From an uncultured Eggerthellaceae bacterium (lineage in GTDB: Bacteria > Actinomycetota > Coriobacteriia > Coriobacteriales > Eggerthellaceae), in NCBI GenBank assembly GCA_947650915.1, contig CANSWY010000002.1:62001-126000 (forward strand): a stretch of DNA of 64,000 nucleotides. The letters run 5' to 3'. The notes below the pieces were generated by a model. It did not search any database, was not told the DNA's origin, and worked only from the letters and a program-made list of their open reading frames with translations. Position 1 is the first letter of the stretch, and each line of letters opens with the position of its first letter. This document shows, one piece after another, positions 25,919-26,068 of the stretch. A program made the translations under genes and the position numbers.

Positions 25919-26068
25919 GATGTACAGAAGGGACGTTCCAAATTGCACAGAGGAGTGAGCCCTGCGCGCTGATGTGCAGAAGGGACGTTCCAAATTGCAC
26001 AGAGGAAAAGATTATGCGCACTGAAAGACGCTTGCTCTGTGCAATTTGGGACGTCCCTTCTGCACATC
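25919..26068 (+). repeat. Family A element A8 with compensatory arm change
   Basis: Extra arm 25919 and core 25971-26068. Here the inner stem reads CACAGAG on the left and CTCTGTG on the right, where other copies have CACATAG and CTATGTG. Both sides changed together and pairing is kept. The outer part is the CAGAAG/CTTCTG version. Confidence 0.92.

What the first reader, a model, noticed from the sequence alone, without database searches (positions are those of the whole stretch)
25971..26068. Paired arm changes in family A support selection for the hairpin
In A8 the inner stem is CACAGAG/CTCTGTG where other copies have CACATAG/CTATGTG: both sides changed. In the outer stem CAAAAG goes with CTTTTG in 12 cores and CAGAAG goes with CTTCTG in A2, A6, A7 and A8. 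A9 and A13 are G:U intermediates. This is the covariation expected of RNA, or of palindromic DNA kept by gene conversion.
Basis: seen in the sequence. Interest (0 to 1): 0.75.

Follow-up and report, generated by a model that had tools for sequence, protein, structure and literature searches.

The report
REPIN-like hairpin repeat, ends matched only
A 98-base hairpin repeated at least 280 times in this one bacterial genome is most likely a small DNA parasite moved by a RAYT-type transposase; its two arms do change together, but only in the outermost nine base pairs, which points to the ends being copied from or matched to each other as DNA rather than to a functional RNA hairpin.

Summary
The paired changes are really in the window: 12 AU and 4 GC at one stem pair, and UA to GC in the copy at 25971-26068. 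One detail is wrong: the second 'G:U intermediate' (A13) is an A.C mismatch on that strand.

I tested 171 copies from half the genome and 47 held-out copies. Concordance between the arms beats shuffles and a tree-based null. However, it is confined to the terminal 9 bp: 75 symmetric against 51 one-sided variants there, 13 against 173 further in; held-out 23:18 against 3:69. Deeper in, the arms differ by a near-fixed T.G mismatch in 161 of 171 copies, and other positions vary on one side with no preference for G.U over A.C. Neither RNA selection nor arm-wide gene conversion predicts this.

The element is a REPIN-like inverted pair of a 27-bp palindromic unit. There are 280 strict copies here and none detected in the one congener held. 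In a related genus, inverted copies of a variant of the unit flank a RAYT (Y1) transposase gene, and one whole core is present.

Preferred reading: a RAYT-mobilised non-autonomous element whose ends are re-templated during movement. Main rival: selection for paired ends.

The parts
25971..26068 (+).
25974..26000 (+). left unit GTGCAGAAGGGACGTTCCAAATTGCAC (T at unit position 16)
   Evidence: folds alone as foot stem, 4x4 internal loop and GGA/TCC top in this copy (3x3 in the consensus unit)
26039..26065 (-). right unit GTGCAGAAGGGACGTCCCAAATTGCAC (C at unit position 16)
26001..26038 (+). 38-nt centre with the short inner stem AGAG/CTCT
25971..25979 (+). terminal 9 bp, left end: the zone in which the two ends covary
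26060..26068 (-). terminal 9 bp, right end: the partner zone
25922..25948 (+). extra outer-left unit, 25 bp from the core unit
723..820 (+). core copy
5898..5995 (-). core copy, reverse orientation
9161..9258 (+). core copy
11127..11224 (+). core copy
20085..20182 (+). core copy; absent at the orthologous place in the congener (204 bp against 11 bp)
20978..21075 (+). core copy; absent in the congener (190 bp against 15 bp)
22524..22621 (+). core copy within a four-unit array; absent in the congener (280 bp against 36 bp)
30198..30295 (+). core copy (G.U at unit position 5)
35881..35977 (+). core copy, 37-nt centre
40384..40481 (+). core copy
45098..45195 (+). core copy
47926..48022 (+). core copy, 37-nt centre
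48216..48313 (+). core copy
52859..52956 (+). core copy with a symmetric change of the terminal base pair (C..G instead of G..C)
59674..59771 (+). core copy
61522..61619 (+). core copy
26123..30292 (-). neighbouring gene, purL-type formylglycinamidine synthase, ends 55 bp from the core
25458..25853 (-). neighbouring gene, MoaE-like

Best explanation
The hairpin is one copy of a REPIN-like, non-autonomous mobile DNA element: two copies of a 27-bp palindromic unit in inverted orientation, dispersed as single-stranded DNA by a RAYT-type (Y1, HUH) transposase. Shown: anatomy, copy number, lineage-specific gain, a RAYT gene flanked by a variant of the same unit in a related genus, and arm covariation confined to the terminal 9 bp. 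Inferred: during mobilisation the element is a folded hairpin with a 5' tail of about nine nucleotides, and its recessed 3' end is completed by copying that tail. Each move then makes the two ends complementary, while mismatches further in are carried along unchanged. The near-fixed difference at position 16 may mark left and right ends (inference).
For: Anatomy: units paired head to head, 38 bp apart in 84 of the 92 pairs spaced 37-39 bp, in 422 kb. Copies: 280 strict cores, control 0; 429 and 413 inner units, control 0. Lineage-specific: no match to the core in the congener or 58 other relatives; three sites in this window lack it in the congener. RAYT link: in G293, another genus of the family, a 263-aa Y1_Tnp gene lies between inverted copies of GTGCAATTGGGACGTTCC(G/A)AATTGCAC, and a whole core sits elsewhere in that genome. 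Four RAYTs of this genome carry different palindromic terminal repeats with GGGACG-like centres; that of L010 folds like the unit. Terminal-only covariation: 75 same: 51 single at the ends against 13: 173 inside, p 1e-24, best change point between unit positions 6 and 7; by distinct variant types, which ignores copy number, 11 of 12 against 2 of 13; held-out 23:18 against 3:69, p 5e-10. Some loci extend the palindrome into flanking sequence by 9 to 33 bp, and some ends are tandemly reiterated, as end copying would give. Precedent: REPIN excision footprints in P. fluorescens leave the last ~6 bp behind, and the authors propose a 5' tail that restores symmetry (PMC3116915).
Against: No RAYT in this genome has the unit within 1.5 kb and none is a clear orthologue of the G293 gene (43-45% identity to all), so the mobilising enzyme here is unidentified. 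Position-6 type is also shared with outer, directly repeated units (z 3.8 to 4.6), so part of the concordance is a property of the locus. Terminal concordance could equally be selection. The step of copying the tail is not observed. Interior exceptions exist (A8-type position, 3 symmetric of 10). Flank extensions are few and only moderately above the shuffle null.
Confidence: 0.5

Rival explanations
1. Same mobile element, but the ends covary because the transposase, or another end-binding protein, needs the terminal 9 bp of the long hairpin to be paired; mismatched ends move poorly, so symmetric variants multiply.
For: Concordance sits exactly at the ends and stops at both -3/-4 and 6/7. A perfect stem mattered for two group-3 RAYTs in vitro (PMC8266576).
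Against: Symmetric transversions are common relative to one-sided ones at the ends (18 against 22) although there is no tolerated wobble intermediate for them; known Y1 enzymes bind each unit hairpin, not the long stem (established knowledge of IS608 and TnpA-REP).
Confidence: 0.29
2. Founder subfamilies: a few master copies happened to have symmetric ends, and the association is inherited.
For: Position 6 type is shared with outer units of the same locus; position 16 shows that a founder state can be kept for long.
Against: At least 11 distinct terminal variant types are concordant against 2 of 13 interior types, so many separate symmetric changes are needed; tree-based nulls are exceeded.
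Confidence: 0.12
3. A functional RNA (or terminator) hairpin kept by compensatory selection.
For: Very stable fold, z -12.8; covariation exceeds shuffles.
Against: No covariation over the inner stem; G.U not preferred over A.C among one-sided interior changes (59:83, 28:32); near-fixed mismatch at position 16; no Rfam family; gene context not clearly biased to 3' ends in a rough call.
Confidence: 0.04
4. Palindromic DNA homogenised by arm-to-arm gene conversion or template switching along the arms.
For: Would give symmetric changes without selection; occasional long inverted extensions of the flanks resemble template switching.
Against: Should act along the whole arm, yet position 16, position 23 and the inner stem stay unmatched (9, 117 and 102 matched of 171, no more than or below chance).
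Confidence: 0.05

Closest known systems
REPINs (REP doublets forming hairpins; Bertels and Rainey 2011, PMC3116915)
   Same: Inverted pair of short palindromes, spacer of near-constant length, long ssDNA hairpin, hundreds of copies, RAYT association, compensatory changes already reported there as common
   Different: The unit lacks the GTAG/GTGG start of canonical REPs; no cognate RAYT found in this genome; compensation is confined to the terminal 9 bp (not tested in REPINs; my Pseudomonas comparison was inconclusive)
TIRtrons / TIRYTs (RAYT genes flanked by long inverted repeats; Di Nocera 2013, PMC3733652)
   Same: RAYT gene between inverted copies of a self-complementary repeat that is also dispersed as dimers; several paralogous RAYTs each with its own repeat in one genome
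   Different: 280 or more copies against 'moderately abundant'; motif GGGACG instead of their GGGGWSAS; heterodimeric arms nearly fixed at one base
IS200/IS605 (IS608) ends
   Same: Y1 transposase domain, subterminal imperfect hairpins with unpaired bases
   Different: No gene inside the element; inverted rather than same-strand end hairpins; guide and cleavage sites not identified
CGTC-tagged REPs (PMC3733652)
   Same: Dispersed palindromes, mostly head-to-head dimers
   Different: CGTC lies in the middle of the unit's palindrome, not as an unpaired end tag

Membership tests
REPIN | two REP-like palindromes in inverted orientation with a spacer of near-constant length, folding as one hairpin | tested here: met
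REPIN | high copy number in one genome | tested here: met
   280 strict cores, control 0
REPIN | canonical REP start GTAG/GTGG followed by a palindrome | tested here: not met
   unit begins (GAT)GTGC and its hairpin foot is ATGTGCAA/TTGCACAT
REPIN | cognate RAYT gene flanked by the same unit in the same genome | tested here: not met
   six Y1_Tnp genes, none with the unit within 1.5 kb; absence of the cognate RAYT is also known for real REPs (PMC3686654)
REPIN | almost exclusively extragenic | tested here: inconclusive
   rough ORF calling: 136 of 175 between genes, 35 inside ORF calls that may be spurious in this GC-rich DNA
TIR-type RAYT repeat (TIRtron) | RAYT gene between inverted copies of the repeat | tested here: met
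   in G293, another genus, with a variant unit; not in this genome
TIR-type RAYT repeat (TIRtron) | GGGGWSAS motif in the repeat | tested here: not met
   unit has AAGGGACGTT; L010 repeat has GGGGACGG; the motif is shared by some, not all, TIRs in the paper
CGTC REP | unpaired terminal CGTC tag | tested here: not met
   CGTC is central in the unit, not an end tag
structured RNA with covariation | compensatory changes along the helix, G.U tolerated | tested here: not met
   no Rfam match
mobile element | empty sites in relatives | tested here: met
   three orthologous junctions without the element in congener G001; exact insertion points not resolvable at ~80% identity
RAYT-mobilised element | binding and cleavage by the transposase | not testable with these tools
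   needs biochemistry

The most novel reading that the evidence does not exclude
REPIN-like elements regenerate their symmetry at every move by copying one end onto the other over a tail of about nine nucleotides. The boundary between covarying and non-covarying base pairs in a genomic copy population would then be a fossil footprint of the cleavage position on the single-stranded intermediate.
Probability: 0.35. Interest if true: 0.75.

Novelty: new variant of a known kind. Interest (0 to 1): 0.55.

Why it matters
How REPs and REPINs spread is still unknown, although they are among the commonest repeats in bacteria. A sharp positional boundary in arm covariation, replicated on held-out copies, gives a sequence-only readout of which part of the element may be rebuilt during movement. 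It can be applied to any REPIN population and tested at the bench. It also warns that covariation between the arms of a mobile hairpin should not be read as evidence for a functional RNA without checking where along the stem it lies.

Tried and rejected
RNA selection: rejected for the stem as a whole (no interior covariation, no G.U preference). Arm-wide gene conversion: rejected (near-fixed mismatch at position 16). Simple shared ancestry: tested with loop-only and full trees, simulations and event counts and by distinct variant types; not sufficient. Pseudomonas GI-type REPIN comparison: 54 doublets mixed several REP classes, so whole-arm concordance is confounded by class; inconclusive. The first genome-contig scan with the unit gave no usable rows; records of the window's own genome may be left out there. 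The single weak hit in congener G001 is an isolated match just upstream of a gene start, not the element. Insertion into pre-existing hairpin loops as the cause of symmetric flanks: considered, not excluded, but symmetry stops at -3 in most copies.

Full report
What was checked. The window is contig C2:62001-126000 of a 1.98-Mb draft genome in 50 contigs. The finding concerns one copy of a dispersed repeat. A script found 54 copies of a 27-bp unit, GTGCAAAAGGGACGTYCCAAATYGCAC, in the window. They include 18 inverted pairs 37 or 38 bp apart (the cores), often with further units outside. Sixteen cores of 98 nt align without gaps.

The observation in the window. It also shows what was left out. 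Columns 26/73 are changed on one side in 9 of 16 cores with no compensation, columns 35/64 in 6 of 16, and columns 19/80 are U.G in all. One of the two 'G:U intermediates' (52612) is an A.C mismatch on that strand. A third double change, of the terminal pair, is in core 52859. With 16 copies the number of pairs changed on both sides is not unusual (77 of 500 shuffles).

Genome-wide test. Stretches totalling 997 kb gave 175 cores, 171 of them with a clear orientation. For every position I counted variants shared by both arms and variants on one arm only. Positions -3, -2, -1 and unit positions 2, 5 and 6 show strong concordance (z 7 to 13; position 2 rests on a single symmetric copy). From unit position 7 inward it vanishes. 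Position 16 is mismatched, almost always T on one arm and C on the other, in 162 of 171 copies (161 T/C, 1 G/C), position 23 has 6 symmetric against 54 one-sided, and the inner stem 2 against 67 at its fifth pair. Pooled, the terminal 9 bp have 75 symmetric and 51 one-sided variants, the rest 13 and 173 (position 16 excluded). The best change point lies between positions 6 and 7, although a boundary one or two positions further in is only slightly less likely. The interior exceptions are the A8 type (3 symmetric of 10) and one symmetric copy at position 22.

Controls. (a) Phylogeny: with binary characters simulated independently on a loop-only tree and on a full tree, 0 of 300 simulations reached the observed association at positions 5 or 6, whereas position 23 is ordinary. 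On a tree built without the terminal 9 bp, parsimony needs 12, 13 and 21 Watson-Crick to Watson-Crick double events at -3, 5 and 6, against null maxima of 3, 4 and 6; interior positions stay within or near their nulls. (b) Copy number: counting each distinct variant type once, 11 of 12 terminal types and 2 of 13 interior types are concordant, p 2e-4. (c) Held-out data: 372 kb fetched after the boundary had been found gave 47 cores with 23:18 at the ends against 3:69 inside, 8 of 8 types against 1 of 9, and the position-16 mismatch in 46 of 47. (d) Unpaired neighbours: outer units, which lie in direct orientation beside the core unit, share the position-6 type (z 3.8 to 4.6) and the position-16 type with it, so some association belongs to the locus; at -3 to -1 their association is weak.

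What this excludes. A structured RNA should covary along the stem and accept G.U in preference to A.C. Among one-sided interior changes on the loop-defined strand, G.U to A.C is 59:83 and, held out, 28:32. Arm-to-arm gene conversion over the whole arm should erase the position-16 mismatch. No Rfam family matches the window.

What the element is. The unit pattern occurs 429 and 413 times on the two strands with none in the reversed control, and 280 strict cores occur genome-wide. The core was not detected in the one other genome of the genus or in 58 further relatives; a looser unit search over 395 genomes of the order found it in only three others. At three junctions in this window that are occupied here, the congener has only 11 to 36 bp. 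In G293, another genus of the same family, inverted copies of GTGCAATTGGGACGTTCC(G/A)AATTGCAC flank a 263-aa reading frame with the Y1_Tnp domain, and a whole core with the same unit lies elsewhere in that genome. This genome has six Y1_Tnp genes, none next to the unit. Four are close paralogues, each flanked by its own palindromic repeat (two of them share one type) with a GGGACG-like centre; the repeat of L010 folds into the same shape as the unit. High-copy REPs without their cognate RAYT are known (PMC3686654).

Mechanism. Shown: anatomy, copy number, lineage-specific gain, RAYT association in a relative, terminal-only covariation. Inferred: mobilisation as a single-stranded hairpin by a RAYT, and completion of the shorter 3' end by copying the 5' tail. 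Bertels and Rainey observed excisions that leave the last ~6 bp of one end behind and proposed that a 5' tail restores symmetry (PMC3116915). That a RAYT-generated 3'-OH might prime synthesis has been suggested (PMC8266576; passage). Palindromic extensions of 9 to 33 bp into the flanks at a few loci, and tandem reiteration of the unit's end in L096 and in the G293 locus, fit end copying but are few. The main rival, selection for paired ends, cannot be excluded from sequence alone.

Novelty. REPINs, RAYT-associated terminal repeats and compensatory changes in REPIN hairpins are known. New here, as far as the papers read show, are an orphan family of at least 280 copies with a non-canonical unit, a near-fixed single-base difference between its arms, and the sharp terminal boundary of covariation.

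Noticed in passing
window 9120-9150, 15914-15959, 17419-17465, 26083-26113: A second dispersed repeat, GAGGTCAC..TCCTCCGTCCCTTTGTGACC, sometimes directly beside a core; not analysed.
   Followed up: no
window 30127-30192, 48072-48137, 52714-52779: A third repeat family, CAAGGGCGCTACGCGCG.AGCGCGTTGAAGCCCGC, next to cores.
   Followed up: no
window 7923-7952, 24051-24080, 27162-27191: Short palindromic repeat GGCAGGGGCAAGCCCCTGCCCTACG; the copy at 27162 lies inside the purL-type gene.
   Followed up: no
L115 16799-16957 (C3), L102 2530-2645 and L107 799-914: The palindrome extends perfectly into the flanking sequence by 33, 12 and 12 bp.
   Followed up: partly
L096 3163-3360 (C5) and L078 1390-1447 (G293): Tandem, degenerate reiterations of the unit's outer end (GTGCAAAAGGTCCCCC; GTGCAATTGG).
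   Followed up: partly
L012 1109-1872 and L014 1468-2232: Two RAYT paralogues 87% identical over 157 aa; L012 appears frame-shifted, L014 is intact; both carry AACCCATTGGGGACGGGG-type terminal repeats.
   Followed up: partly
G281 (another genus of the family), L082-L087: At least ten units of the type TGCAATTGGGACGTTCCTAATTGCA but no Y1_Tnp gene in an 85%-complete assembly: a second orphan population.
   Followed up: partly
window 24110-25465: Serpin gene (Pfam PF00079) in the neighbourhood.
   Followed up: no
window 53209-53313: 21-bp tandem repeat within a long open frame; the encoded protein was not examined.
   Followed up: no
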